Part shown: one piece after another, positions 1-61,511 of the stretch
How positions within the stretch are numbered: position 1 is the first letter of the stretch
Layout: every line of letters begins with the position of its first letter
Assembly (NCBI GenBank): GCA_037367355.1
Contig: JAVSCG010000040.1
Coordinates: forward strand, 1-64,000
Length of the DNA stretch: 64,000 nt
Direction of reading: 5' to 3'
DNA from: Neoscytalidium dimidiatum
Taxonomy: Eukaryota; Ascomycota; Dothideomycetes; Botryosphaeriales; Botryosphaeriaceae
Translations under genes and position numbers: made by a program
The notes under the pieces: generated by a model
Databases searched by the model: none
The model's input: the letters and a program-made list of their open reading frames with translations, nothing else
Told to the model about the DNA's origin: nothing

Positions 1-20773
<20,773 letters not shown>

Positions 20774-30400: not shown

Positions 30401-33400
30401 CATTCAATAAACTTAATATTTATTGATGGTTTTTTTACTTCATGGGAACCCTTATTTTCATTATAAAGTTTAGATGAAAATTTAAAGGGAACAATTAAAG
30501 AAGTAATACACTGACCTTTATACATACAACCCTGTCTCATATCGTCTTAAAAATGTACAGACGGTATTTTTTTTTTCTAAGCACTAGTAGAGACAATTAT
30601 AGAAAAAAAAAACGAGAATCGGAAAATTTTACACAGTATTTTTGTATAATATCCTTAAGTATATTAAGGATTAAAGGTTACCTTTAATTTATTTAAGGGA
30701 TCGGACTATATCTTTACCTATATTAGCTATAATTTACATTATATATTATAAGCTAAAAGGTATATCACGTGTAGTCTCTGAGGACCCAACTACGTATATT
30801 GTAAGCTGGTTTCCTGCTGATTGTTCTAAGCTATGTATTGTTAAATAACACAATTATAATGAATTAGATGTTTCCAGCATATAGTGATATTTTTAAACAG
30901 CTATTACTATCTTAACTGTTGCACCCCACAAACTCATTTGACCATAAGGCAAGACATATCCTAAGAAAGCTGTAGCCATCATTAGTATTAATATCACAGT
31001 ACCTATAGCTCATACTAGTGTTCTAGGTGCTCTGTATGATCCATAATATAAACCTCTTCCTATATGTAAGTAAACTAAGAAGAAGAAAGCCGAAGCTGTA
31101 TTTGCGTGTAAGTAACGGATTAATCATCCGTTATTCACATCTCTCATAATATGTTCAACTGAGTTAAATGCTTCTAAAACACTAGGATTGTAATGCCAAA
31201 TTCTAGTATAATAACCTATTGCTTATATATTTCTATTTTAAATTAGATAACTCTTTTATTAATTTTTCTAATTCTGCGTCTCTTTGATCCGATCTTACCT
31301 GATCATTTAAAAGACAAACTATTTTTAATCAAGCTGAAAGCTGTAAAGCTTTATGGCCGGCTAAAGGATAATTATTAAAATGTGGAATTATTGTACTAAT
31401 GATTTCATCTTTAGTACGTAATCTATATCTGCTCATACCTTTAGTATCAGTATAAACATTACCTATTTTAAAGTAAGAAGCTATTAAATTTAATATTTGT
31501 AAATCTTGTGTTCTCTGACTTATTTCAAACACAAGAGAATAATCTTTAACTATTTTACCTACAGAACTTAAACGAGTTTTTGTAAAATACGTAAAAGAAC
31601 CTTCACCAGTAGCAAACCCAGATATTCAAAAAGGATTTAAGATTTGTACTGTATTTGAAACACTTAAGCCTAAAGAAGTTTCAAACTCTACTTTAGGTAA
31701 AGGACCTAATTGCCCTAATTTATCTAAAAGTGATTGAGATAAAGGTTTATTCAATTTATTTATTAAAGAAGCTAATTTTAAAAATCCAGGAATGTTAGTA
31801 TGAAGTTTATTATTAATAAGATTAAGTATTTCACAGAAATATGCAAAATTTAGACCTTTAGTTGTTTGTAAAGGATACTTATTAAAGTGAGCAATAATAA
31901 TATTAAGCTCTTGTCTTGATCTAACTCTAAACCGAGCATCTTTACCCACTACTGATACTGAACCTACAGAAAAGAAATTTTTAATTAAGTTTAATAACTC
32001 TAAATCTCTCACATGTAAAGTAATAATAAAACAAGGTTCTATAGTTCAACCTATAGCTGCTGTTTTTGATTTAAATATTGACATTGCAAAAGAACCTTCA
32101 GCGTCAACAAAACCAGTTACCCATCATGGATTTAAATACTTAGATTTACTTTGTTTATCCGTACTATAACATCTAACCTGTTTAACTTGACTTTTCTTTT
32201 TAACAAAAGAATTATAACGGTAATTTGATAATTTAGAATTAGAACGACCATCTATTAATAAAAAAACTAATGCTACAAAAATAGGAATAAATAAGTAATA
32301 ACCTGTATCTTATTTTTTTTCAAACAAGAATGGACTATATCTTCACATATTCATATGAATATTTATAAAATATGTGTCTTACTTTTAGTCTCTGAGGACC
32401 CAACTAATATTAAAATATTGGAAGGTTTCCTGCTGATTGTCCTAAATTAACAAAATTAATTGTTCAAAATATTTTTTGCTTCCTTCCGAAGGATAGGATA
32501 GCTACAATGAAGATATTTAGGATGTTCCAGCATATGGTAAGATTTTATAGCAACCCATTAATTGCTAGAGTTACACCTGTTACACCAAAGCTTAAGACAT
32601 AGCTCGGGTAAAAAACAAAGAACTGGTCTAAAATGGGTTGCTATAGCGACACACTATATATAGATACCAGAAATCTTCTCTGATATAGATTATTAGTACA
32701 TTATCTTCGCAGGGGAGGGGAAGGAAAAAATAAATAACTTTTCTATAGCATTTTTTATATTTCTTTTCTTTCATTTTGAAAGATAAGAAATATCCAAGTA
32801 GGCTTATATTATTACACCTAATACCCAGCTTCTGAAAAATCTAGAGTAAACCTACTAGTAGTATTTATAAGAAAACCCCTCTGGAAACAGGGGATAGAAA
32901 AAGATAAAACAACCTTTGCACTTTAACGTAAGTTAGATCAATCAAAAATAAAGAGAAAGAAGGAAAGGAAAGGAGAGAATAGGCGAGGCAGTAAGAGAAG
33001 ATATACCTATTATGTACCGTATTAAACTTTTTTAAAAGTAAATGTACCTATTACTTTACTTCGTATGGATATAGGTGCATTTTTGTTAATTCATCTTCCA
33101 ACTGATACTTTACTTACTCCAAAATAATCAGCACATTCTGCATTTGATTTAAATTTAAAAGATTTAGAATTACCTAAATCAGTAACTAAAACACTTGAAC
33201 CTATTTTATGCTTTATACCTGGTAAACCTTGAGAGTTCTTTTTTATAATTAATATACCAGATTGATCGGATTCAACATAATTACTAGCACTATTTAATAA
33301 AGCTATTATTTCCTTATTTATTTTATAGTCAAGTAACTTACGTTTAGTTCCCAATCTTGATTTTAATTTAGCTATAATAAGTTTTCCTTCAGGAAGATGA

Positions 33401-40074: not shown

Positions 40075-40535
40075 ATGCCGGTTTAACCGGCTATATTTAG
40101 TATATATATTTATATTTATAGGGGCAGTATAGGAAAGGGACCTATGCTGGGAGAAATAATCTCCTCTGTATCCGACTCCTAATGCAAAGCCTCCTACTTC
40201 CAAAGAGTAGGTTAGTTGCCATCCACACGCCAAATGCTATTCGTAATAAGGTGGTCTGTTGTTAACCACTGGTTAGACCTTGACCCGAAAGGGAATAAAG
40301 TACCTATTCATGACCTAGTATTCATAACTAGTGGGTGTGGTAGGGCAAGAGCTGTAGCAAGCTGCGTTAACCTAAATCCGTTACGGTTTCTCTCAAATGC
40401 AATCGGAAGCGGATATGGTTTGATTATATGTGGCGCAGATACTAAACTGTCTGAGTATTGACAGTCGATCCCTCTTAATCGAAAGGGACCGTTCTTGAAA
40501 GACTAATTTGGTATACTTATTTTTAAACAAAAGAC
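40075..40535 (+). other. GC-richer leader region before the polymerase gene
   Basis: Balanced composition. A 98-codon open frame (40216-40509 with TGA as Trp) is present but resembles nothing recognised. Could be a structural RNA or plasmid terminal region. No function assigned. Confidence 0.35.
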
Positions 40536-40831
40536 ATGAAAAATTTAAATAACAACATTAAAACGCTAGCTACGCGTATAAACTTAGCAAATAATGCAAC
40601 TATTGGGTTTAATAAAGCTTCTAAAAGAAGAAGAAGTTATAGTAATAAGGTGGGGAATAGATGATGAATTAAACCATCAAAGGCTATGCCTGCTCCAAGT
40701 ACGCTTAGAATGCTACATTTAGAAAAGTTAGCTTCAACTCCAACTCCACAAGGATACGAAGCTAGACAAATGCTTAACTTTATTCATACTATGAATAAAT
40801 TAAAACATAATCAAAAGAAATTTTACTCTTC

Positions 40832-41000
40832 TAGTCCCCCCTGGGGGCCTGCCCCTCAGGGTCGGGGACCTCCCCTCCCCCCGAGGGGAAGTACGAGGGA
40901 AAAAAGAAAAGTAGAAAAAATTTGATTAGATAATTATATATTCCCTTCTACCCAGGGGGTGGTCCCACCTCATGGGGAGGACTCCGCAATGGGGACTAGT
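40832..41000. repeat. Two GC hairpin elements inside the polymerase gene
   Basis: 40832-40894 ('ctagtcccccctggggg ... gaggggaagta') and 40950-41000 ('cccagggggtggtcccacc ... ggggactag'). Both leave the reading frame open, adding Pro/Gly-rich residues just after the shared N-terminal module. Confidence 0.8.
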
Positions 41001-43857
41001 TTAAAATTGTTTAAAGAAAGATTGTTCTTTACTGGTAAATTAAAAGCAGGTGTAGAATATTTTGTTATTGTAAAAATTAGAATGGGTAATGTTTATCGTA
41101 ATGTAGGTGAAAAGCAAGAAGAATTCAAATTTTATTCAATTGAAGATGCATCTTTTGAAAGATTATTTGAAACTATAAATGATAAATTAAATCATTTAAA
41201 TGAATATCCATCAGATAGTAGTTTAGATTATTCTTCTTTTGATAGTTTATTATTAGAATTTTATCAAGTAAACGTTAAAGATGAATTAAAATCTTATAAT
41301 TTATCAAAATTAAAGGATAAATTGGCTAGAACTGAGTTCGATAATACCAAAAAAATGTTTAATTATTTTGGTTATTCTATATTTGACATTAAAGGTAATC
41401 CTTTAGAATTTAACTTAGATGAAAAAGGGTTGTATATTAAAGGGTTAAAATCTTTGGAAGGTTTCAAGAATTTTGAAGAATTCTTTTTTTCTAAATTAAA
41501 ATCAAAGCATAAAGATTATATTCTAGATATTAAAAGTAAATTGTATTTAATAGAATTTAAAAATAGACAATTTTATTATAGTATTGAATAATATAAAAGA
41601 TAATGAAGTAGAAAAATTGTTTCAATAGATTTGGTCAACTAGTATCTAGATGTAAAGATGTTAATCTACAAAATGGTAATTTACGTAGAGAATCAGGTAA
41701 TATGGTTCATATTTTTAATAGTGAATATGATCTAATAATGAGCGAAAAGAAAATAGGACTTAGTCCTATTAAAAGTGAATTTGCAAAAGTTTCTGAAGGT
41801 TTTGTACCCAATACAAATATTGGGGTTTTAGATCTTGAAACTTATGAACGTGACGGAGTGGCTAAATGTTTTGCTGTAGGTTTCTATGCATCTATAGATG
41901 AAACATGTAGAACGTTTTACATAAATAAAGATTTAGATAGTAACGAATTAATGAAACGTTGTATCGATGAACTGTTAAGACCAAAATATAAAGATATTAC
42001 ATTTTACGTTCATAATCTTGGAAAATATGATGGTAATTTTATACCTAAAATAATAACTTCTTTTAATCAAAATTATAATAATATTGAAGATCATTATAAT
42101 ATAAATAGTATCAATAGAAAAAGTGATATATTACGTTTAGTAATAAAGAAAAAAAATAGATGGAAAAGTTAGAAAATTAATATTACAAGATAGTCTTGCA
42201 ATATTACCTAGATCTTTAAGAGATCTTTGTAAAGATTATAAAGTTTCTATATCTAAAGGTCATTTTCCCTATGAATTCTGTAATAAAGATACACTATTCT
42301 ATATAGGGAAAACACCAGACATTTACTTCTATAAAGATCTAGTGGATTCAGATGTTGATGATAAAGATATTGAAAGAGTTAGATATGAAAGGTATAACCA
42401 ATTATATAAAGAGGAATGGGATTTAAAAGAAGAATGTCTTAAATATTTAGAAAAAGATTTATTAAGTTTATATGAAGTTTTAATCAAAGTTTGTAAATCT
42501 TTACATTTATTATTTGATATTCAAATGGTTGATCATATAACTGTTTCAAGTATGTCAATGTCAATATTTTTAAATAAGTATTATAAAATAGGTGAAAAAC
42601 CTTTACCTTTAATAAACAATAAAACAATATTTGATGATATACATCATGCATATTATGGAGGTAGAGTTGAAGTGTATAACCCTATACCTGATGAAGGTTC
42701 TTTTTATTATGATGTCAACTCGTTATATCCATTTGCTTCTTTATCACCTCTTCCTGGAACTAATTGTATATATAGAGAATATCACATAGAAAAACCAATA
42801 TTATCAGATCTATTTGGATTTTACTATTGTAAAGTAGAATTATATAATAATTACTTAGGATTATTACCATATAGAGATGAAACAGGTGTATTATCTTTCC
42901 CTAATGGTGGATGATATGGTTGATTTTTCTCTGAGGAGTTGAAATTTGCGTCAGAACATGGAGCAGAAATTGAAATAATAAAAGGTTATAATTTTAATAA
43001 AGTTGATTCTGTTTTTAGTGAATTTGTTAATGATATTTATCAAATAAAATCAAATCCAAGAAATGATACAGAGAAAAATGTTTCTAAATTAATTTTAAAT
43101 AGTTTAATTGGTAGATTTGGTATGGATTTTTATAAAAGTGTTACAAAACTAGTAGATCAGGAACATCATGATTATATTACGACAACTAGAATAGTAAAAG
43201 ATTCAAAAATGATTGATGATAATTTATATATAGATTGTTATATACCAAGTATAAATAAAGAGATTTGTGATAAATTTGGAGTAGATTTTACTAAAGCTTT
43301 AAATTATGAAAAATATGATGATATAAAAGATGTAAAATCATATAAAACTGTATCTATTACAACTGCTGCAGCTGTACTTTCATACGCTAGAATTCATATG
43401 GCAAGAATTATGTTATATATCATTAATAATGGTGGTACTATTTATTATCATGATACTGATAGTATAGTAACTAATTTTAAACTACCTGAGGATTTAGTAA
43501 ATCAAAAAGAATTAGGTAAATTAAAATTAGAGTATATTATTAAAAAAGGATTATTTGTTGGGGATAAAACATATTGTATCGTACCTATTGAAGGTAAAAC
43601 GGTTAAAAGAGCTAAAGCTATTAAAAGTGAATATCTTACATATGACGACTACTTAAAAATGTATAATATGGAAGTATTAGAAAATGCAATTAAAGTTAGT
43701 TCTGTCAGAGATATAACACAGGGTAGTGTTCTTATTAAAACAAAAAATGATGTTAATTTAGATGTTACTCAATACAATAAACGTAAAAGAATATTCAAAA
43801 AAGGTAAGTGAGTAGGAACTAAACCTATAGTAGTAGGTAATAACAAGAGTTATTATT

Positions 43858-44736: not shown

Positions 44737-46958
44737 TTAGTTTTTTACACCAAGATATAATAATCTTGGTGTTTTTTTTTTTTTTTTTACTAAGTCCCGA
44801 AGGGGACTCCCTCTTTTTCTTTTATTTATGTAATAAATAAAAGAAGAGCAGGGACCTTCCCCTATATTACTTACATTCTCAATATTATTAAAATCCAATT
44901 TAATAATACTTTTATTCATTTCATTTCTACTTGGATAATAACAACCTAGATAACCTAAATTTGGTTTAATAACATTAACTAAAGCTTTACTATCCACCTT
45001 TAATTCATTATATAAGTTATTATCATAATCTTTTGCCTTATTTGAAAGAGAATTAAATAAATAAATATTGAAAAGGGTAAATATATACATATCCTTTCCA
45101 TATTGAATTAGATCACCTGTATCTAAATCAAAAAATTCTTTTATTAAATTATTTTTAAAATCTGTAAAACTTAAGAAGAAATCTAATTCTAAATTTCTGT
45201 CTAATACGCTAATATTATATTTCTTGTAAGGTTCACCTGTAATACTTAAATTCTTAAAATGATCTACATATTGAGTATACATATATTTTAAACAATATCA
45301 TACTAATCTTTTACTAAATCATGATATAATGACACTAATTCATATTTATAATCCTTACAAGGAGCTAAAAACATCTCTCCTGGTGCGTTAACTTTAACAG
45401 TTCTTTCATATAAATGACTATAATAATATTCTATCTGTTCTAAACAAAAAGAGTACAATAAGTTATCAGCAGTATTTATTAAATATAAATAATAATTATT
45501 TTTCATAACAGTATTATTAAGTTTATAATAATATAAGTTTACATAATAAAAATTACGGAAGGCTGTTTTAAAATAAATACTACGTAAAGAAAAATAAGAT
45601 TTCTTATAATTAAAATCAATAAAATAAACAAGAAATAAAATATCGGGTTTAGGTATTAATTTATTAGAATAATTGTTATTTACTCATTTAGTAATACCCG
45701 TCTTTCTATAAAGACCTGATCTAGGATCTACAATCCTTTTATCTTTTTTAATACTATCTAATTTATTTATCTGATTTAACTTACCTAAAGACATCTCTTT
45801 TCTATCTGCCTCTTTTCTATCTGCCTCTTTTCTATCTGATAGATAAGGACCCATTCAAGTATCTTCATTTAAATTAGAATCATCCCAATTATCATCCATT
45901 TGTTCGAGCAAATAATTTTTTAAAGCACCAGAACAAGGAATAGATGTAAAAAAAGATCTTTTCCTTGCGAAGCTAGAAGCGATAATTTTTCTTTTCTTTA
46001 AGAAAGAAAACCCCTTAACAGGAGTAGTAGTATATCTTTTATAATGAAAACCCCTTTTTTGGATATTAAATACATCTGTAGAGTTTTTTATATTTGAAGT
46101 TGTATTATTAGAATTTACAGTGCCTATATTAGAACCATTATTTGAATAATTATTTGAGGAATCGTCTGATTTATTTACAGATTTTTCTTTTTCTTCATAA
46201 TTATCTGCTACGTGTTCTGGAGAAGTACCATTTCTAGGTACAGTTTCACCGAAAGGGAAAGCGTCAAGGAAAATATCTCATTCTTTATCAGTATAATTAA
46301 AGAATGATTTACTAAGTTCAGGATAACGAGAGAAAACTGCGAAAGATTCTGTAACTACATTAGTATCAAAACCATATAAAACCATTGCCACTTTAGATAA
46401 AAAGAATTGCTGAGGTGAAAGAACACGTTTTAATGTATTGTTTCCACTATTAAGGTTTATATTATATTTCTTAAATCCTGTTTTAATCAGGCTTCATTTT
46501 AAACCTTCTGATACAAATACAATTTGAATATCCTTATTTTCCTCACAAAGAGAACTTAGAGATATTAAAAATTCTTTACTAAATAGTTGTTCGTAACTAA
46601 TAGTTCTAATTTTCATTTTTGATGAACCAAAGTAATTACTATAATTAGTATGTCATCCCTTTGATAGACCCTCAGAAATACCTCCTTTTTTAATATAGAA
46701 AATAGCCAATTATTTGAAACGAAGAAAGTCTAATCTAAACTCAATTTCATCTCTGCTGCTTTGAGGTTTCTTAAAAGTAAATAGAGTAGATCCATAAATA
46801 TTACTAGATTCTCCGGATTTAGGAAATTTAAAGTGAGATAAAGCAATAATAGTCATAGCATTACGAGAGTATCCATGTATAATATTCATTCATTTTAATG
46901 CTTCATCTTTAGATAAACCATTGTTGTTGTTATTGTTATTGTTGTTTTGTGTTTTCAT
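44737..46958 (-). pseudogene. Large unrecognised plasmid-type protein, broken
   Basis: ATG at 46958 followed by a poly-Asn tract. One in-frame TAA at 46710-46712 and a frameshift near 45300 separate three otherwise open pieces totalling about 730 codons. Features: a Ser/Asn-rich middle, an R-G-F-H-Y-K-R-Y-T-T-T-P motif at about 46030, and triple D-R-K-E-A repeats at about 45800. The C-terminus is altered by a double-hairpin element at 44790-44872. No polymerase or nuclease motif recognised. Confidence 0.6.
44790..44872. repeat. Double-hairpin element
   Basis: 'taagtcccgaaggggact' followed by an AT-rich stem built on 'cttttatttatgtaataaataaaag', closed by 'agggacctt'. The same AT stem is found inside the element at 55171. 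Confidence 0.8.
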
Positions 46959-50163: not shown

Positions 50164-50646
50164 TTAGAAAGATTTTTTACATCTCATGCGTGTTAATGTA
50201 CGGCAAGCCTTTACAATATTATTAAAAAAATAAGTTAATGTTTGTTTATCTGCACTATAAACAAACAATTTGTTTAAGGCTAAAGTATGTATATTGATAC
50301 TAAAATTTGACCCAGTCGAAGCTGATAATCCTTTTACCTTAGATTTTTCAACAATTATTAAATATCGATCTTTATATAATACATTTAATCCTAATTCACT
50401 TTTAGATAAAATATGAGAATTAAGAGATTTTACATCTACATTAAGGGCAGATGCAGCTTTACGAATAGACGAATAGCTAGTAGTTAAACTAGCCTTAGCA
50501 TCAAAAACCTTAATATTTCTATCCCAAGGGTTTTTTATATTTATCTTCTTTTTTTTTATATTTATTAAAGAAGATAAAAAAAGAACATTATCAGATAAAG
50601 ATGATTCACTTAAAGTAATATCAAAATTATATAATAAATTTTTCAA
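50164..50646 (-). CDS. NUMOD1-like fragment downstream of atp9
   Basis: 160 codons. The middle (K-V-F-D-A-K-A-S-L, then I-R-K-A-A-S-A-L-N-V-D-V-K-S-L) is a NUMOD1 helix-turn-helix of the type ending GIY-YIG endonucleases. There is no nuclease domain. It closely resembles the tail of the atp9-intron endonuclease (V-R-K-T-A-S-A-I-N-F-D-I-K). Probably a leftover of a 3'-end-associated HEG. Confidence 0.6.
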   Translation of the reverse strand: MKNLLYNFDITLSESSLSDNVLFLSSLINIKKKKINIKNPWDRNIKVFDAKASLTTSYSSIRKAASALNVDVKSLNSHILSKSELGLNVLYKDRYLIIVEKSKVKGLSASTGSNFSINIHTLALNKLFVYSADKQTLTYFFNNIVKACRTLTRMRCKKSF

Positions 50647-50727
50647 TACATAGAAGCAATAAAAAATAATCTAAATTTATATAACTTAATATAACTAAAA
50701 AATCTACACCTTAGATATCTAATAATA

Positions 50728-52248
<1,521 letters not shown>

Positions 52249-52780
52249 TTACTATATTATGCTTTTACCTTGCATATGTTATACTATATATTATATCTAA
52301 AGATAATAAATAAAAATAATTACACTTTTTAGAAAATAGCCCCTTATGGAACATGGAATCCCCCCCTACTTCAGAGGGAAGATTGTAAAGAACAATAATC
52401 TATTAGAAAAAAACTTTTTTACGTCACGTACTTTTTTTTTTCTCTTTATATAAAAAAAAAGAAAAAATGAAATTTAACAAATTTTGTATAAATTTTTATT
52501 ATAGTCATATGTATTATTATTTACTCTTATTGTAGTATATATCTGATTAATTTATACTTGATTAATTTTACCTAAAGGGGCACCCCCACTACATGTTTTG
52601 GAAAGGGTTAAAAAAAAAAAGAGGGGGTAGACTACTAGTATATTATATATATTAAAAATTTTTTATATAATTATTTTATATTAAAATGGTAATAATTTTT
52701 AGCTGATAATTTGTCAAGATAATATTTAAGAAAGTTATTTACAATAAAGAAAGAGTTGTCTTTAGTATCATTTTTATTGT
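52249..52780. other. Spacer upstream of atp9
   Basis: AT-rich; an A/T-pure hairpin lies at about 52430-52470. No gene seen. Confidence 0.5.
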
Positions 52781-52871
52781 ATACCGGCGGGGGGAGCCGG
52801 GGGAGCCCGTCAGGGCGACGGGTCCCCGCAGGTTGGGGCCCCGGCTACGCCGGGGGGGGGGGACCCCAACT
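52781..52871. repeat. Double-hairpin element cluster
   Basis: 'ccggcggggggagccggggg', 'cccgtcagggcgacggg', 'tccccgcaggttggggccccggctacgccgggg', 'ggaccccaac'. Shares 'ggctacgccgggg...gaccccaac' with 58380. Confidence 0.85.
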
Positions 52872-53046
52872 AATTTTCAAAAATCATTAGCCAATTTAAT
52901 TGTATTGGAAGAAGCATTAGCAGACTTTGTTCTAGAATAATAAGACCTACATTGTGTCTTAAGAATTATATTCTGAACGATTTTTTTATATGACTATTTG
53001 TGTATAATATATTTTTAATAATGTCATTATTATACACAGATATATT

Positions 53047-53279
53047 TTATCTACTATCAATTTTTAAAGCTCCTTTACCTAATTCGAATACAAAACCTAA
53101 AGTTAGCATGACGAAAAAGATTAACATAATAATTAAACCATAAGCACCATTTGTATATGCACTTACTACGTAAGGATAAACTAATAATATTTCTAAATCA
53201 AAAAGAAAGAATAACAAGGCAAAATGAAGAAAGATATATTGAAAGGTGATCTAGTTTGCTGGAAAGAATGTAAACCACA
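53047..53279 (-). pseudogene. nad3 3' end, third copy
   Basis: Matches nad3 from C-G-F-H-S-F to K-I-D-S-R and a stop. One T is missing in the run encoding F-F-I-F-A, so it is out of frame there. It is nearly identical in sequence to the working nad3 over the last 150 bp, closer than the second copy. It may be the displaced native 3' end. Confidence 0.88.
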
Positions 53280-53297
53280 CAATTATTTATCAAGTGA

Positions 53298-53363
53298 ACT
53301 AGCCCCTCTCTCTCTGCAAGAGAGAGAGAGGGGCCTGGTCCCCCCCCCGGGGGGGGGAACTAG
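53298..53363. repeat. Double-hairpin element flanked by AACTAG
   Basis: 'cccctctctctctgcaagag...gagaggggcc' plus 'ggtcccccccccgggggggg' between two copies of AACTAG, a probable 6-bp target duplication. Confidence 0.85.
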
Positions 53364-53771
53364 GTTTATAATAAGAAAACTTCTATTTCTTATTATAAGG
53401 TTCACCCGATTGTATGTATTTAAGTATAGTAGAATATTCTATACCTATAGCTCTGGCTGCTGAACGGATAGGGGATAAACTGTTTTAAGGCAAGTATCTA
53501 AATCTAACACCTCTATTTTTATACCAATACGTCAAGACTATACAACCTTAGTAGTTTTTACATAAGTTGTTTCTAATCTTGTTAAAACATATCTATTATT
53601 AAGAGGTTTGACCTGATTTTTAGAAAAATATTTTGCAATTCGACCACGAGAAAGATTTAAATCTTTCTCTGCTTGTACCATAGAGTCATATGTTTTTACA
53701 GTATTAGTCAAAATATCTTTAACTGAAATTGTAGCTCTGCTGGGTTGAGCTTTAGATATTTTCTCTATTTC

Positions 53772-53818
53772 CTGCGGTGCGGAAATCCCCTTAGGGATTC
53801 TAAATCCCCGCACGGGAT
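53772..53818. repeat. Small GC palindrome
   Basis: 'tgcggtgcggaaatcccct' with inverse 'aaatccccgcacggga', inserted in the second nad3-array endonuclease and shifting its frame. Confidence 0.65.
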
Positions 53819-53968
53819 AGTAGACTTACTATGAGTATATCCTAACCTAGAAGGCATAGTATTAGATACCTGAACTATATTATACTCAGGATTTAGAAGA
53901 TTTAAATAATAATTCTCTCTATCTACAAGATCTTCATAAGAGCAATATTCTAAAATTTCTAATCTAAA

Positions 53969-54031
53969 ACTACCCTGGGGGGGGGGAGGTCCCCCCTCCC
54001 CCAGCAGAAGGCTGGGGGGAAGGGGGACTAG
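53969..54031. repeat. Double-hairpin element flanked by ACTA
   Basis: 'ccctggggggggggaggtccccc' and 'cccccagcagaaggctgggggg', bounded by ACTA on both sides. Taking out the element plus one ACTA restores the Y-S-S-F-R-L reading expected for the family. Confidence 0.88.
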
Positions 54032-54329
54032 AATAACCGTACTTAAGTAAAGCACGACAGATTAACATCTTATAGTTATCTTTAAGATGGTTTATATTAA
54101 AATAGCTGGTAAATCTATCTTTTAAATGCACAGAAGAGCCTACATAGCTTTTACCCTTATTAATATTAACCCTACGATAAATACCAGATTTACTTTTATT
54201 TTCTTTTAATATTCTAATTTTATCAACATTTGCATTATCATAAACTAAAATAGGCATATTCTTATTAGGGCCCGTAGTATAGTATCGACGTTGATAAAAA
54301 GACCGAGTAAGATTATTATCTTTAGTTCT

Positions 54330-54556
54330 TTATATATATATATGGACGTTTTTAGGTGCATCATTACCTATGCTATATGTTTGTCTGCTGTCAATTTTAA
54401 GGGCTCCTTTACCTAATTCAAATACAAAACCTAAAGTTAACATTACAAAGAAAACAAGCAAGATAATTAATCCATAAGCACCATTAGTATAAGCGCTAAC
54501 GACATACGGATAAACTAAAAGAATTTCTAAATCAAAGAGTAAAAATAGTAAAGCTA
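54330..54556 (-). pseudogene. nad3 3' end, second copy
   Basis: Encodes L-A-L-L-F-L-L-F-D-L-E-I through G-K-G-A-L-K-I-D-S-R-Q, then a tail ending at a TAA in an AT microsatellite (54330s), directly in frame with the following endonuclease leader. Its third-position differences from nad3 are many, unlike the third copy, so it is probably of foreign origin. Confidence 0.85.
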
Positions 54557-54772
54557 GGATCTTCTCTGCTAGTTTGGGAACTCTTTTATTTATTGAATAA
54601 ATAATTTCCCTTTCCTACTTTAAAAAATGGGAAAGGGAAGATCGGAAAGATCAGACGAAAGAAAAGTCATCGAAAGAAGGGAAATAAAAACAGGCACAAC
54701 AATAAGAAAAAATTTTCTTTTGCATGCAAGGCCGCAAAAGAAAAAAGGGGTGGAGGTAAGCAGCATGATTTA

Positions 54773-56210
54773 TTAAACCTCACTAACACGTTCAATTTTA
54801 AATAAACCTTTGTATATAGTACCTTTAGTACAGCAATCTGATACCGTACCAGGGGAACATTTATAATCAGGACTTAGTCCTCTTAAGTACGCAGCAGTCT
54901 CCATTCCAGAATTAAAAATTAAAACCTCGTTAGTTTTAATATTAGTTACTTTAGTTATTTTAGAGATTTTTAACTTAGTCGCCTCTCTTGTACTATTAAC
55001 TTGCTTCATAACTTCTTTTCTTCGAATTACACGAAGTTCATTTACAAGATTTGATAAAGTATCAACACTTAATAAATTTTCAGTATACTAAACTGGCTCT
55101 AAAGGAGTGTTCGTAAAAAGAATCCTATTTAAATATAAAGCACCTACACGCTTAAGATTAGGTATATTACTAGTCCCCGGAGGGGCCTGCCCCGAATTAT
55201 TAAGGGACCTCACCGGCCCCCCCGCTCTTCTTTTATTTATTACATAAATAAAAGAAATTATAATCCGGGGAAGCTGACATATTCAGAATTTTACCTAACT
55301 GTGTTTGGCTTTTAGCTATATAAATAAGTTCTTTTTTTACTGTATCGTATAAATATACAGGTTTTGAGTTTTTAGTAAAAGAAGGCAACATAGACTCAAC
55401 GGTACGCTTTAAACCTGCAGGTGAACCTGCTACTTTTAAAACGTTATACTCAGGATTAAACTTAAGAAGTAATATTTGTTCTAAAGCTAAAGTTAAACTT
55501 TTTAATCTGACCTTCGAGATAGAGGTATTATTACCTTCTGAAAGTTATAATTCTGAGGGTAAAATAAAAAGATCTAGAAAGAATGAACTTAATCCAGATT
55601 CTGTAATGGCTGAATCAATTTTTCTTTTACCTAACCTTGGTCCAAAATAACCAGTAGATAACCGATTAGCTAAAGAAATCGAAGATCCTACGTAGCAAAA
55701 CCCATTATTTTTATTAGTAAACATATAAACCCCTGCTTTACCTGTTTCACCGTTACGAACATATTTACCTATTAATTTTTCCAATTCAGGCTTATAACCT
55801 GCAGATAAATCGAATCTTATTGGGTTAATATTAACTAATATGTCAAACTCAGCAGGTGTTAGGTTAAAGCCAGGTATGTGACAACTAAGAATAGAAACAA
55901 TTAGATTAAAATCAATTTTATCTTTTATAGATTTGTTATTAGAATTGCTTTTAATAAAGCTATTAACAATAATAAATGGATTGCTGCTATCTAATTTGTC
56001 ACTACTATTAACCTTTTTTCAAAAATCTATTTCTCTCTTATTTCTAACTGAAATAAGAGAGAGAGTAGAAGAATTTAACCCTCGGTTACTACCTGTAGAA
56101 TATGATCTACGCTGGGATAAAGACTCTTTAATAAATTTTTTATATGTATTTTGTTTTATTAAAACATATGAATTATTAGTAACCTTATGCTTTATATTTA
56201 TAGGATCCGA
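54773..56210 (-). pseudogene. GIY-YIG endonuclease 1 fused in frame to nad3, broken
   Basis: The reading frame runs from nad3 without a stop to 55545. It contains R-R-S-Y-S-T-G-S (about 56089-56112), then A-G-V-Y-M-F and F-C-Y-V-G-S-S-I-S-L. A TAA at 55545 interrupts just after L-P-S-E-L. The same frame then continues with P-E-Y-N-V-L-K-V-A-G-S-P-A-G. A double-hairpin element at 55171-55273 separates the NUMOD-like tail (55009-54773). The nad3 stop codon is absent, so any Nad3 made carries this extension unless processed. Confidence 0.82.
55171..55273. repeat. Double-hairpin element with AT-rich inner stem
   Basis: 'ctagtccccggaggggcctg', 'aattattaagggacctcacc', an inner stem 'cttcttttatttattacata...aaaagaa', and 'taatccggggaag'. 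A composite of the elements at 43858 and 44790. Confidence 0.85.
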
Positions 56211-56561
56211 TTGTCTGCTATCTATTTTTAAGGCTCCTTTACCTAATTCAAAGACAAACCCTAAAGTTAGCATGACGAAAAAGATTAACATAATAATTAA
56301 ACCATAAGCACCATTTGTATATGCACTTACTACGTAAGGATAAACTAATAATATTTCTAAATCAAAAAGAAGGAATAACAAGGCAAAAATAAAAAATGAA
56401 ATATTAAAAGGTGATCTAGTTTGCTGGAATGAATGAAAGCCACACTCGAACGCAGAACCCTTTTCTTCATAAGGGGTATGTGGAGCTAATATTAAATTTA
56501 CTGCTAAAAGAATAATAGCTAAAATAGGAATAAATACTAAAAAAAAAGTTGTACTAGTCAT
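56211..56561 (-). CDS. nad3: nad3, NADH dehydrogenase subunit 3
   Basis: Membrane subunit of respiratory complex I. ATG at 56561 overlaps the nad2 stop by one base, a common fungal arrangement. 117 conserved residues: three membrane helices, the Y-E-E-K-G-S-A-F-E-C-G-F-H loop with its Cys, and F-D-L-E-I-L-L-V-Y-P. After K-I-D-S-R-Q the frame continues into an endonuclease instead of stopping. Two more 3' ends lie downstream. Confidence 0.95.
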
Positions 56562-58243
56562 TAAGGATTAAACATAATAAGGGCTAATATATTAGCCATA
56601 CTTAATCATTCCTGAGGTACAAATATAAATAATGATATAATAAGAGTTAAAATAGAGATTATTATAGTATTAGAACTTGATAATTTTATATTATCAGGAG
56701 TATATGTAAATTTATGTATTAATCCTGCACGATTAATAACATTTCCTGTAAGGATTAAATCGTTCAACTCTGAGTTAAATTTATGATCTGGTTTTTCAAA
56801 GAAAATTTGTTTTACAATTACTAAGTAGTAGACTGCACTTACCACACTAGTAAGAATACCTATTAAAGTAATAAATATATAACCACTATCTAAGGCAGCA
56901 CTGAACACCATCTGTTTAGCAAAGAATCCCATTAAAGGAGGAATACCAGCAAAAGAGAAAAGACTTATAGATAAACTCAATGCTAAAACAGGGTTTATGT
57001 AAAAGTACCCTTTTAATTGACTAATAAGTTGTATAGGTGAGTTGTTCTTATCTTGTAAATCAGAATCGTTATTGTTTGTATAAAGATATAATGAATAACC
57101 AATAGTAATTAAAATAAGAAATGCATTTAGATTAGCAATAGAATATTGAGTAAGATAGAAAATAAATGCTTGTATAGATTCTATACTGTACACACTTAAA
57201 GCTAATAATATAAAACCTACATGTGAAATTGTACTATAAGCATATAATCTTTTTATTCTAAATTGAGTTAAACCAAGTACTGATCCTACTATTAATGATA
57301 ATAAAGAACTCAATAATAAACTAGTAATTCATGAATAGTTGAAAGAGAATAATGATTTGCTAGTGTAATGTACTAACCCTAAGAAAAAAATAAATATAGA
57401 TACTTTAGCAACTATAGCTACAAATGTTGTAACTATAGTAGGTATAGCGTCATAGACGTCAGGGCTTCATAAATGGAAAGGAGCAGCACTCACTTTAAAT
57501 AAAAACCCTACTGACATAATAAGTAATGAAAGATGTATATAATATGGTTTATATCAATATAGTATGTTTGTATTATCAAGAGATGTTTCTGATATGCTAG
57601 TTATTACATATAAACTATCTAAACTAGTAGTACCTGAATTAGCATATAATAAACTAGTAGATAATAATATAAAACAAGATGATAGACCCCCTAATAAAAA
57701 ATATGTAAGACCTCCACTAGTCGCTAATTCGGAGTTTCTATATATGGTACTTAATAAATATAAACCATAACTTTGTAACTCTATAGATAAAAATATTGAA
57801 ACTATATCACTACTTGACATTAAAAATAGAGCACCACTTACTATAAATAAAATAATAAGTGGATATTCTATAATTCTAAATTGTTCACCCATTTTATTTA
57901 TTATTTTTGTTTTATAGTTTAGGAATTTAGAAAAGATTAAGTGATTAAAGCTAGAATAATTATCTAATCATATTTTTCTAGGGTAGAAAGCAGTTAAACT
58001 TAATATTGATGCACTTAACAATAATACAAACAGATGAAAAATTTGTGTAGTACTGTTAGTATAAAATAAGCCCCCGTATAGACCAATTCCTTTTTCTAAA
58101 AATGATATATATAAACCATTGTAACATAAGAAACTTGAATATAATAATATTATAATAGCAACACGAGAATATAATATAGATTTATCACGTCTAGTAGTAA
58201 CGGCATTAGACATTAATAATAAAATTAAAGAAGTAAGTAACAT
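56561..58243 (-). CDS. nad2: nad2, NADH dehydrogenase subunit 2
   Basis: Complex I proton-pumping membrane subunit, 560 residues, uninterrupted in code 4. ATG at 58243 was chosen because it sits directly after tRNA-Ile; the in-frame ATG at 58255 lies inside the tRNA. Typical segments: [43 protein letters not shown]. It ends I-M-F-N-P and overlaps nad3 by one base. Confidence 0.95.
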
Positions 58244-58619: not shown

Positions 58620-58978
58620 TTAATAACATATATTGTATATTATGTATACAATATCTTAAGCAATTACCTTTATACCTTTTATTATCTAGAATTTATTATA
58701 TTTCATAATAAATTCTAGATCATTTATGATATAAAAAGGATAGGTAATAGTTACAATTTAACTTTTCCTGCCGGCAGCTTTACAGCCTAAGGAATTTTTT
58801 TTTGCATTCTTCAAAAAAAAGGGAACTAAAAATTTAAGTAGGAAGTGGAACTTCTCCTCTTATCCCCTATCATTAGCTAAAAGCTAACCCCCCTCTTTGG
58901 TTTTTATTTGTTTCTGAATAAGTTTTCATAGGAGAAGAGTACTAAAGGTATTATCATAAAGTTGATTAATTATAATCC
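58620..58978. other. Spacer with palindrome
   Basis: AT-rich; 'atctagaatttattat' with its inverse at 58684-58722 forms a hairpin. No gene seen. Confidence 0.5.
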
Positions 58979-59134
58979 TTAGTAATAAATAGATATGAAT
59001 AAAAATAATCATACTACGTCTACAAAGTATCAATACAAAATTCCCGCTTCCAATCCAAGATGGTGATTGTTTGTTTGATGATATGCCAAAACACGTCATA
59101 AACCCACTGCTAAAAAGGCTGTTCCTATTATAAC
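58979..59134 (-). pseudogene. Duplicate 3' end of cox3
   Basis: Begins exactly where the last cox3 exon begins and matches it codon for codon ([14 protein letters not shown]). Differences include D to N before N-H-H-L, the conserved His of L-Y-W-H-F changed to Tyr, and TAA replacing the Trp codon three residues before the end. Confidence 0.9.
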
Positions 59135-59679
59135 CAAATATTTAATATACAAATTATTTATAGAAATATAATTTAAAAAATATTATATCCACTTTTTTAT
59201 ATGTAGGCTTTAATCATAATAGAATATATGAGCTTCTCCTTACTTTCCTATAATTTATTATAGGGATAATCAAATATCTTACTTCCTGGTCGCAAGGATG
59301 GATATCTGTCCGTTAACCCGTTTTTTTGTTTAGACTTTAAAAAACATAAAACGAATAAAACATAAAACGAATAAAACATAAAAATAAATATTAAACCAAA
59401 TTAAATTGATCCCACGTGCTACTAAAAAATTTATATACCATTAGGCAGATTAATGGCACGATCTAAAATCTAAATGAGAATTAAATTTAAAGAACCCTTT
59501 ATTAAAGGTGTTCTTTAATTGACTAATCCCTTTATAAAGGGAGTCCTGAAATTTAACCACTTTAGATCTAAAGTGGTCAGATAAAGAATCTCTAGATAAA
59601 TTACTAAAATGAAAAATTTTACTTACCCTACCTGAAGGGACTAAATAAGAATCTACCTAATCTAATGCAACACGGGAAT

Positions 59680-60461: not shown

Positions 60462-60626
60462 TTACGATCCCCAGTAGTATATAGAAACAAATAGGAATAA
60501 TCATACTACGTCTACGAAGTGTCAGTATAAAATTCCCGCTTCTAATCCAAGATGGTGGTTATCAGTTTGATGGTATGCTAATACACGTCATAAACCTACT
60601 GCTAAAAAGGCTGTTCCTATCATAAC
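60462..60626 (-). CDS. cox3: cox3 last exon
   Basis: Encodes the C-terminal 54 residues of cytochrome c oxidase subunit 3: [38 protein letters not shown], ending I-Y-Y-W-G-S and TAA. Three Trp codons are TGA. Upstream exons lie beyond the window. Confidence 0.93.
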
Positions 60627-61511
60627 CGCGTCTATCTTTACTTCAGCATATCGAACGATTTATGCGTGTTTAACTATTATAGTTAATACATATGTATATA
60701 AACACATAAATCATATAACTCCGACTTAGCTAGGACGTAAAGTTATTTCCATATTTCTAAGGAAGACTGAGTACACCTTAATTACAGAAGAGAAACTAGA
60801 GTTAATATTTAAAATCTATCTCATTCTTCTATAACAACTACCATCTACTCGATGCGCTTTTCCATATTAAATGATTAATATAGGTTAGTTCCGCGATTAC
60901 CCATTTAAGTTTCCTTAATACAATAACTTATTACCTCACCCATTATGATTAGTAATGGTACTTATTATTAGACTTTTCACTATGTATAAGGTGGTATTAT
61001 TGTCTTTAGGGTTTCCCCGGAGTTTGGCAGCTTAGTATAACTTAAGATTAATTTAAACTTTTACTTCTTATAAAGTATAGTACAAGTACCAAAAGGGTGT
61101 TATTATACTTTAATCTCCTTCTAGCCACATTTATATAAATTTATATAAATTAGGGAGACCTCGATAACGTCTTACCCCTATTATTAGTAAAAAAAAAGAA
61201 TGGAAATGGAAAGGAAAAGAAAACTAGAGCTAGAAAGGAGTCCGTAATTAAACCCTTGCTACAGCAAAGGGTAAAAGAAAAGGGTGTCAACCCATAAAAT
61301 ACTTACTATCTGCCTTTATTCATCTCAGATTTTATTTGACAAACCTTGTCAAATCCCTCTTTGGTTAAATGATCCTTAGCTTTTATTATTTTGGCTATTT
61401 CACACCAATCATTAAAATCTTTCGATTTTACACCTCTTATGCTAAATTCACGGAAAAACGGTATTATTTTTTCATAAATTTCTGAAAAACTCAGACATTC
61501 AAAATATACCG

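What the first reader, a model, noticed from the sequence alone, without database searches (positions are those of the whole stretch)
53047..56561. nad3 3' end present three times, interleaved with two GIY-YIG endonucleases
Working nad3 has no stop of its own: it runs in frame into a GIY-YIG gene. Downstream come a second nad3 3' end, a second GIY-YIG gene and a third nad3 3' end. The third copy is almost identical to the working gene while the middle one is divergent. This suggests successive insertions in which an endonuclease arrives with a foreign 3' end and displaces the resident one. The Allomyces atp6/ORF360 case (Paquin and Lang) is the known precedent. A double insertion in nad3 is not one I know of.
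Basis: partly seen in the sequence, partly recalled or inferred. Interest (0 to 1): 0.88.

Follow-up and report, generated by a model that had tools for sequence, protein, structure and literature searches.

The report
Stacked endonuclease inserts in mitochondrial nad3
In this fungal mitochondrial genome the complex I gene nad3 appears to have been invaded again and again by DNA-cutting parasites, each bringing its own copy of the gene's end and pushing the previous end downstream, and the joint between gene and parasite carries what looks like a protein-cutting signal.

Summary
On the minus strand nad3 (start 56561) runs in frame into a GIY-YIG ORF. Behind it lie a second nad3 3' end, a second GIY-YIG ORF and a third 3' end. 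The array is identical in both copies of the circle in the assembly. The kind is known: Allomyces atp6 (Paquin and Lang, recalled), nad3 and other genes in Glomus (PMC3630166), and single nad3/GIY-YIG ORFs in Cryphonectria and Chrysoporthe (PMC4894602). What I add: (1) The two endonucleases belong to two different nad3-associated families; both ORFs are broken. (2) The 3' ends look like distinct alleles: tail B matches unnamed relatives P0007, P0009 and P0124; tail C matches P0012. (3) The likeness of copies A and C is concentrated in a 112-nt identical tract, which points to later gene conversion. (4) Behind C lies a probable remnant of a third, older family-1 element. (5) Stacking probably occurs in other fungi (P0235). 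(6) In 34 of 37 nad3-endonuclease fusions examined, a presequence-type cleavage motif (R/K-x-Y/F-S/T-S/T) sits in the linker, against about 2 expected. I propose, untested, that matrix processing peptidase releases the endonuclease from the complex I subunit.

The parts
56211..56561 (-). working nad3 coding region (117 codons to SRQ), no stop; start overlaps the nad2 stop by one base
56211..56396 (-). nad3 3' end, copy A (in the working gene)
56094..56108 (-). R-x-Y-S-T motif (in RRSYSTG) in the linker between nad3 and GIY-1
54773..56210 (-). GIY-1: family-1 nad3-associated GIY-YIG ORF; in-frame stops at 55545 and about 55088, GC-rich insert about 55161-55237
54381..54566 (-). nad3 3' end, copy B
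54273..54287 (-). R-x-Y-T-T motif (in RRYYTTG) in the linker between copy B and GIY-2
53350..54380 (-). GIY-2: family-2 nad3-associated GIY-YIG/NUMOD1 ORF, broken by an in-frame TAA at 54330, GC-rich inserts and later stops
53301..53360 (.). GC-rich cluster flanked by GAACTAG on both sides, between the GIY-2 end and copy C
53047..53280 (-). nad3 3' end, copy C (from codon 40; one frameshift; TAA where A and B have CAA at the end of the conserved part)
53096..53207 (-). 112-nt tract of copy C identical to copy A (gene conversion)
52969..53046 (-). tail behind copy C (NISVYNNDIIKNILYTNS...), matching unnamed relative P0012
52677..52948 (-). probable remnant of a third, older family-1 element: RSYYSRTK..ANDFWKLV, GC-rich insert, DNSFFIVNNFLK

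Best explanation
nad3 is a repeat landing site for free-standing (intron-less) homing elements. Each element consists of a nad3 3' part, a short linker and a GIY-YIG endonuclease in one frame. Cutting of an element-free nad3 in its conserved ECGF loop (about codons 39-42) and repair from a donor joins the resident 5' part to the incoming 3' part and leaves the old 3' end behind the endonuclease. In this lineage that happened at least twice and probably three times: first a family-1 element (now copy C plus remnant), then a family-2 element (B plus GIY-2), last a family-1 element (A plus GIY-1). Afterwards the endonucleases decayed and part of A and C was homogenised by gene conversion. Shown: the array, the families, the distinct tails, the identical tract, the broken ORFs. 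Inferred: cutting, insertion site, order and direction of transfer. Proposed: the conserved R-x-Y-S-T motif in the linker is cut by mitochondrial processing peptidase/ICP55, so that nad3 ends normally and the endonuclease is freed.
For: Architecture and in-frame fusion. Two endonuclease families, each fused to nad3 in other fungi. Tail B resembles P0009, P0007 and P0124, and tail C resembles P0012 (scores 92, 92, 70 and 65, each 0 of 2,000 shuffles; the top scorers among 243 relatives), so the 3' ends look like different alleles. Copy C begins at codon 40, 70 bases behind the GIY-2 end. P0004 and P0008, seemingly displaced ends with endonucleases in other fungi, begin at codons 40 and 42. The 112-nt A/C tract has P = 0.00017 (200,000 draws), while A and B differ at 25 of 112 sites there. 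The family-1 remnant behind C has E = 1.7e-4 and ranks second of 2,440 stop-to-stop frames, behind GIY-1 only. P0235 holds two nad3 ends, each with an endonuclease part, in one ORF. Motif in 34 of 37 fusions against a shuffled mean of 1.8 and maximum of 6 in 2,000.
Against: No usable DNA of the relatives could be fetched (searches found none; two weak 34% loci were not used), so donor and resident cannot be told apart by silent sites. The protein tree of the ends is poorly resolved, with 4 of 35 branches starred. Tail A has no close match: its best score, 49 with P0007 (0 of 2,000 shuffles), rests mainly on the shared QRRxYxTG motif. The A/C tract could have moved either way. The scored piece behind C is short (27 profile positions). 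Both endonucleases are broken here, so no activity can be assumed. The order of insertion rests on position. PMC4019555 prefers, for Phlebia atp6, an endonuclease that moved in behind the stop codon over transfer of a foreign end (passages). For the cleavage proposal: no amphipathic helix precedes the motif (mean z -0.27), 3 of 37 fusions lack it in strict form, and family-2 ORFs not fused to nad3 (P0245, P0246) carry it near their start too.
Confidence: 0.8

Rival explanations
1. Local tandem duplication of the nad3 3' end inside this mtDNA, with endonuclease genes inserted later behind or between the copies.
For: All three copies are close at the protein level and fall in one shallow clade. 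A and C share a 112-nt identical tract. PMC4894602 reads comparable Cryphonectriaceae ORFs as duplications (passages), and PMC4019555 prefers endonuclease transposition behind the stop codon for Phlebia atp6 (passages).
Against: Tails B and C match different relatives. B differs from A at 25 of 112 sites in the tract where A and C agree. End-plus-endonuclease units of both families occur as fusions in other fungi. 0 of 200 bootstrap trees join the three copies, although copy A is identical in protein to P0009 and P0123, which weakens that count.
Confidence: 0.1
2. nad3 has group I introns with duplicated 3' exons, and splicing joins the 5' exon to one of the copies.
For: Endonuclease ORFs in frame with an upstream exon are common in fungal mitochondrial introns (PMC8260586 passages). 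The Tremella study first predicted such units as introns (PMC7315562 passages), and one of the six (nad4-i2) was a real intron.
Against: No group I intron match at E up to 10 in 50500-57000, while 4 are found elsewhere in the window. The working gene is uninterrupted through its conserved end. In Tremella the nad3 unit proved to be downstream sequence by cDNA. Limit: the presumed atp9 intron in the same stretch was not found either.
Confidence: 0.07
3. Assembly artefact (chimeric or collapsed reads).
For: The contig is a concatemer of the circle (307,956 bases against a unit of about 176.8 kb).
Against: The array is identical in both units (0 differences in 4,843 bases). The unit offset differs elsewhere (176,842 here, 176,851 near 99 kb, 176,906 near 17 kb), so the second unit does not look like a mere copy. 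Relatives carry the B and C tail types separately.
Confidence: 0.03

Closest known systems
Allomyces macrogynus atp6/ORF360 element (Paquin and Lang; recalled, and as described in PMC3630166 passages)
   Same: Endonuclease ORF inserted at the end of a mitochondrial gene, with a foreign 3' end in use and the old one behind the ORF
   Different: atp6, one insert, endonuclease shown biochemically to drive mobility (as stated); here nad3, two to three inserts, the ORFs broken, close donors
Glomus sp. DAOM-229456 mobile-ORF hybrids of atp6, atp9, cox2 and nad3 (PMC3630166, passages)
   Same: nad3 with inserted C-terminus, in-phase mobile ORF and displaced native C-terminus; hybrids expressed at the mRNA level
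   Different: LAGLIDADG in nad3, one element per gene, inserted end much more divergent (73% against 98% to the insert-free relative)
nad3_copy ORFs of Chrysoporthe austroafricana and Cryphonectria parasitica (PMC4894602, passages)
   Same: By length probably P0243 (600 aa, 1,803 bp) and P0002 (519 aa, 1,560 bp): nad3 fused to GIY-YIG, endogenous nad3 close by; P0002 is family 1
   Different: One element each, described there as duplication; no series of displaced ends described in the passages seen
Phlebia radiata atp6 and cox2 with alternative 3' ends and endonucleases (PMC4019555, passages)
   Same: Alternative C-terminal coding ends associated with endonuclease ORFs
   Different: Other genes and a different preferred explanation (endonuclease moved behind the stop codon)
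Tremella fuciformis host-gene fragment exchange units, including nad3 (PMC7315562, passages)
   Same: Partial host gene duplicated by a mobile unit, with a model of foreign gene-part replacement
   Different: Population polymorphism; endonuclease type not compared here
Truncated atp6/atp9 copies in Sclerotinia borealis (PMC4162613, passages)
   Same: Helotialean mtDNA with partial gene copies; an atp9 copy without stop runs into an unrelated sequence
   Different: Other genes, explained there as duplication

Membership tests
Allomyces ORF360-type / mobile-ORF elements | Endonuclease ORF directly follows a host-gene 3' end, outside a recognisable intron | tested here: met
   intron detection has limited sensitivity
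Allomyces ORF360-type / mobile-ORF elements | Incoming 3' end is in phase with the resident 5' part | tested here: met
   Open frame 56561-55548
Allomyces ORF360-type / mobile-ORF elements | Old 3' end persists behind the endonuclease ORF | tested here: met
   Copies B and C; C starts 70 bases behind GIY-2
Allomyces ORF360-type / mobile-ORF elements | Displaced end is closer to insert-free relatives than the working end | tested here: inconclusive
   Tail C matches P0012, but the tree of ends is unresolved, C may itself have come with an older element, and no relative DNA was available
Allomyces ORF360-type / mobile-ORF elements | Endonuclease cleaves the insert-free gene | not testable with these tools
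   Both ORFs here are broken
Family-1 and family-2 nad3-associated GIY-YIG endonucleases | Sequence relationship to nad3-fused GIY-YIG proteins | tested here: met
   GIY-1: P0001 1.5e-93 for the whole fusion, nad3 part included. GIY-2: P0007 tblastn 1.8e-121 on the window, copy B included
Family-1 and family-2 nad3-associated GIY-YIG endonucleases | Intact endonuclease reading frame | tested here: not met
   Stops and GC-rich inserts in both; these are remnants
Group I intron | Group I catalytic core | tested here: not met
   No RF00028 match at E up to 10 in 50500-57000; the presumed atp9 intron there was missed as well
MPP/ICP55 substrate | Cleavage consensus RX(F/Y/I/L)|(S/A)(S/T) (quoted in PMC8847149 passages) | tested here: met
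   30 of 37 fusions, shuffled mean 1.3 and maximum 7 in 5,000; 0 matches in 7,112 residues more than 90 residues into the tails. The window's own A linker fits (RSYST); its B linker (RYYTT) fits only the looser pattern
MPP/ICP55 substrate | Presequence-like amphipathic helix before the site | tested here: not met
   Mean z -0.27 over 35 linkers; 3 with z above 1, 7 below -1
MPP/ICP55 substrate | Actual cleavage | not testable with these tools
   needs N-terminal proteomics or purified peptidase

The most novel reading that the evidence does not exclude
nad3-endonuclease ORFs of fungal mitochondria encode polyproteins. The matrix presequence machinery (MPP, then ICP55), which normally acts on imported proteins, cuts these mitochondrially made proteins at a conserved R-x-Y|S-T site. 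This frees the endonuclease and leaves a usable complex I subunit. A cheap cleavage site would be what makes C-terminal invasion of respiratory genes tolerable and lets insertions pile up in one gene.
Probability: 0.35. Interest if true: 0.78.

Novelty: new variant of a known kind. Interest (0 to 1): 0.62.

Why it matters
Published cases that I saw show one endonuclease replacing one gene's 3' end. A stack of two or three in one gene, with signs of stacking elsewhere, makes nad3 a record of successive invasions: insertion order, displaced alleles and later gene conversion in one locus. It also warns that nad3 3' ends can be foreign or mosaic in phylogenies. If the linker motif is a processing site, it answers how a complex I subunit can end in an endonuclease, and it would be a substrate class for presequence peptidases that is made inside the organelle; my paper searches on this (open-access library only) did not list such a report.

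Tried and rejected
Tried without result. Viral contigs: scans with the fused ORF, nad3 and alignment A1 found no relative; A2 gave two weak 34% loci, not used. Genome contigs with A1: none (a second scan was allowed and not used). The protein tree of ends is poorly resolved. The helical-moment test did not support a presequence-like helix. In the window's 42 ORFs of 150 aa or more the motif count is only 7 against 3.2 expected, so it is not a general feature of them. Structure models of P0001 and P0007 (mean pLDDT 60.5 and 67.1) have low-confidence linkers at 106-175 and 109-157, which hold the motif; this fits an exposed linker but is weak.

Considered and rejected: tandem duplication, twintron or alternative 3' exon, assembly artefact (see rivals). 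I dropped my first idea that C is the untouched native end, because of the family-1 remnant behind it. A possible match of tail A with P0123 scored only 33 and is not claimed. NCBIfam named the endonuclease parts 'group I intron endonuclease' (TIGR01453): over the cut-off in P0001 and P0007, under it (39 against 56 bits) in the window's broken ORF.
Full report
What the window is. The window is the first 64,000 bases of contig C40 (307,956 bases) of a 43.76-Mb, 40-contig genome. The gene content is that of a fungal mitochondrial genome, and the contig holds more than one turn of a circle of about 176.8 kb: nad3 recurs at an offset of 176,842. The array is the same in both turns (0 differences in 4,843 bases), while the offset elsewhere is 176,851 or 176,906, so the second turn does not look like a mere copy. 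No nuclear copy of nad3 was found: all 8 matches at E up to 0.001 lie on C40. By nad3 it is near Leotiomycetes; Ciborinia camelliae, P0171, is a named hit at 82%.

What is there. All parts lie on the minus strand. nad3 starts at 56561, overlapping the nad2 stop by one base, and stays open to 55545; Pfam finds nad3 and the start of a GIY-YIG domain in the one frame. Copies of the nad3 3' end are A (56396-56211), B (54566-54381) and C (53280-53047). Between A and B lies GIY-1, between B and C lies GIY-2. Both are relics. GIY-1 has two in-frame stops and a GC-rich insert. GIY-2 has an in-frame stop in its linker, GC-rich inserts and further stops. GIY-2 reaches to residue 426 of the 428 of its open relative P0007 at 53350, and copy C starts 70 bases on, at codon 40, just after a GC-rich cluster flanked by GAACTAG and a stop codon.

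The endonucleases. GIY-1 and GIY-2 belong to two families that are each fused to nad3 in other fungi. Of 953 hits to the GIY-1 fusion, 6,746 to nad3 and 972 to P0007, only the best 120 of each were listed; I held 290 proteins. Family 1 includes P0002 (named Cryphonectria parasitica). Open family-2 fusions include the close relative P0007. P0243 (named Chrysoporthe austroafricana) also is a nad3-GIY-YIG fusion. By length these two fit the 1,560-bp and 1,803-bp nad3 copies of PMC4894602, which lie close to an endogenous nad3 and were read there as duplications (passages).

Three alleles rather than three duplicates. I compared the tail after SRQ of each copy with the tails of 243 relatives. Tail B: P0009 and P0007 (score 92 each) and P0124 (70). 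Tail C: P0012 (65; the next relative 38). Each has 0 of 2,000 shuffles as good. P0012 has its C-type tail on an otherwise complete nad3. Tail A has no close match: 49 with P0007 (0 of 2,000), resting mainly on the QRRxYxTG motif. In a 62-column protein tree of 40 rows (37 chosen relatives) the three copies fall in one shallow clade with P0007, P0009, P0012 and P0121-P0124 (support 84/82), and 0 of 200 bootstrap trees join the three alone; only 4 of 35 branches are starred, and copy A is identical to P0009 and P0123. So the donors were probably close kin, and the tree alone does not settle the matter.

Gene conversion. A and C differ at 17 of 235 columns, with a 112-nt stretch free of differences (P = 0.00017 in 200,000 random placements). 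A and B differ at 25 of 112 sites in nearly the same stretch, so selection does not explain the identity. In the last 55 nt A-C, A-B and B-C differ by 7, 6 and 7.

A third element. Behind C and its tail, a profile of the family-1 domain between nad3 and GIY-YIG, built from relatives in alignment A1, finds 52760-52677 (E = 1.7e-4, second of 2,440 stop-to-stop frames of 15 or more residues, behind GIY-1 only; the next is 0.19). Upstream of it, across a GC-rich insert, another part of that domain (ANDFWKLV) and a linker-like RSYYSRTK can be read (by eye and a weak tblastn match only). So C itself probably came with an older family-1 element whose rest, and the end it displaced, are lost.

Other fungi. 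P0004 begins at codon 40 of nad3, P0008 at 42, P0254 at 61 and P0248 at 62, each followed by an endonuclease. These look like displaced ends, though predicted protein starts can also be cut short for other reasons. P0235 holds nad3, a truncated family-2 piece, a second nad3 end (0 of 5,000 shuffles as good) and a second endonuclease in one ORF. P0046, P0239 and P0254 each list 440,003 bases as their longest contig, so one contig may carry three such units; this is an inference from length. P0240 joins a family-2 front to a back that matches family 1 (383-589 against P0001 350-541, 33%, 4e-31).

The linker motif. Of 177 tails of 60 residues or more among the 290 proteins, 37 carry an endonuclease domain (E up to 1e-5, own profiles). 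34 of the 37 have [RK]x[YF][ST][ST] within 90 residues of the nad3 end, against a mean of 1.8 and a maximum of 6 in 2,000 shuffles; the three without it are P0008 (RFHST), P0018 and P0254 (RIFYST). Of the 140 other tails 12 have it, against 3.4 (maximum 9 in 500). The published MPP/ICP55 form RX(F/Y/I/L)|(S/A)(S/T) (PMC8847149, passages) is in 30 of 37 (26 distinct contexts; shuffled mean 1.3, maximum 7 in 5,000) and has 0 matches in 7,112 residues further into the tails. S-T of the motif is invariant in the 12 rows of alignment A1, while the rest of the linker hardly aligns; in the 16 rows of A2 the Y is invariant and the last T nearly so. Linkers before the motif have a mean net charge of +3.2 with 1.2 acidic residues, against +1.7 and 4.1 in equal stretches after it (35 linkers), but no amphipathic helix precedes the site. 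That the Nad3 C-terminus faces the matrix is recalled from complex I structures; only shows that solved relatives exist. The fusions are related to each other, so the 37 are not independent. I propose release by the presequence peptidases; cleavage is not shown.

Rivals. Group I intron: no match in 50500-57000 at E up to 10, although 4 were found elsewhere in the window; the presumed atp9 intron in the same stretch was missed too. Endonuclease moved in behind the stop codon: preferred for Phlebia atp6 in PMC4019555 (passages); it does not explain the distinct tails here. Tandem duplication and artefact: see the Rival explanations section.

Known or new. All papers cited by PMC number were seen as passages only. 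The mechanism class is known (PMC3630166, PMC7315562, PMC4894602, PMC4162613, PMC4019555). Searches that could have shown stacked insertions (capped listings, open-access library only) listed none that I recognised as such. The stack, the conversion tract and the third remnant make it a new variant of a known kind.

Noticed in passing
window 58976-59143 and 60462-60632 (-): cox3 also has its 3' end twice (85% over 167 nt), about 1.3 kb apart with decayed sequence and GC-rich stretches between; no family was recognised in the three ORFs tested between them.
   Followed up: partly
window 52066-52248, 51294-51680, about 50743 (-): atp9 breaks off after FAEATG, a GIY-YIG ORF follows, and a [13 protein letters not shown] 3' piece lies further on: an intron or another invaded gene. 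A nuclear atp9-like match lies on C8.
   Followed up: partly
window 52772-52880, 53301-53360, 53771-53816, 53962-54034, 55161-55237: GC-rich clusters sit in and beside the dead endonuclease ORFs; the one at 53301-53360 is flanked by GAACTAG, as if inserted with a target duplication.
   Followed up: partly
window 40527-41588 (+), 45306-46709, 31236-32309, 18776-20773, 11636-13021, 15567-16547 (-): R/K-x-Y/F-S/T-S/T motifs also occur in ORFs without nad3, two of which I took for plasmid-like by eye; 7 in all against 3.2 expected in 42 ORFs.
   Followed up: partly
P0001 residues 166-250; window about 56042-55791 (-): Family-1 proteins share a conserved, by prediction mostly helical domain between linker and GIY-YIG (DFWKKV..NPFIIVNNFLK) that Pfam does not name in the window's ORF.
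   Followed up: partly
P0014-P0120, various: Many fungal nad3 proteins carry long tails without any endonuclease; some hold RRFSTS- or KYFSTS-like motifs.
   Followed up: no
window about 56430-56400 (-): nad3 codons 45-52 read QQTRSPFN where many relatives have LGQNRTQFS (one residue longer), close to the inferred insertion site; could mark an altered cutting site.
   Followed up: no
PMC6221350, Table 1: Coniothyrium glycines nad3 is listed as 418 aa, so it may be another unremarked fusion; sequence not seen.
   Followed up: no
G000 C40: The unit offset between the two turns differs between regions (176,842 to 176,906), so the turns are not identical everywhere.
   Followed up: no
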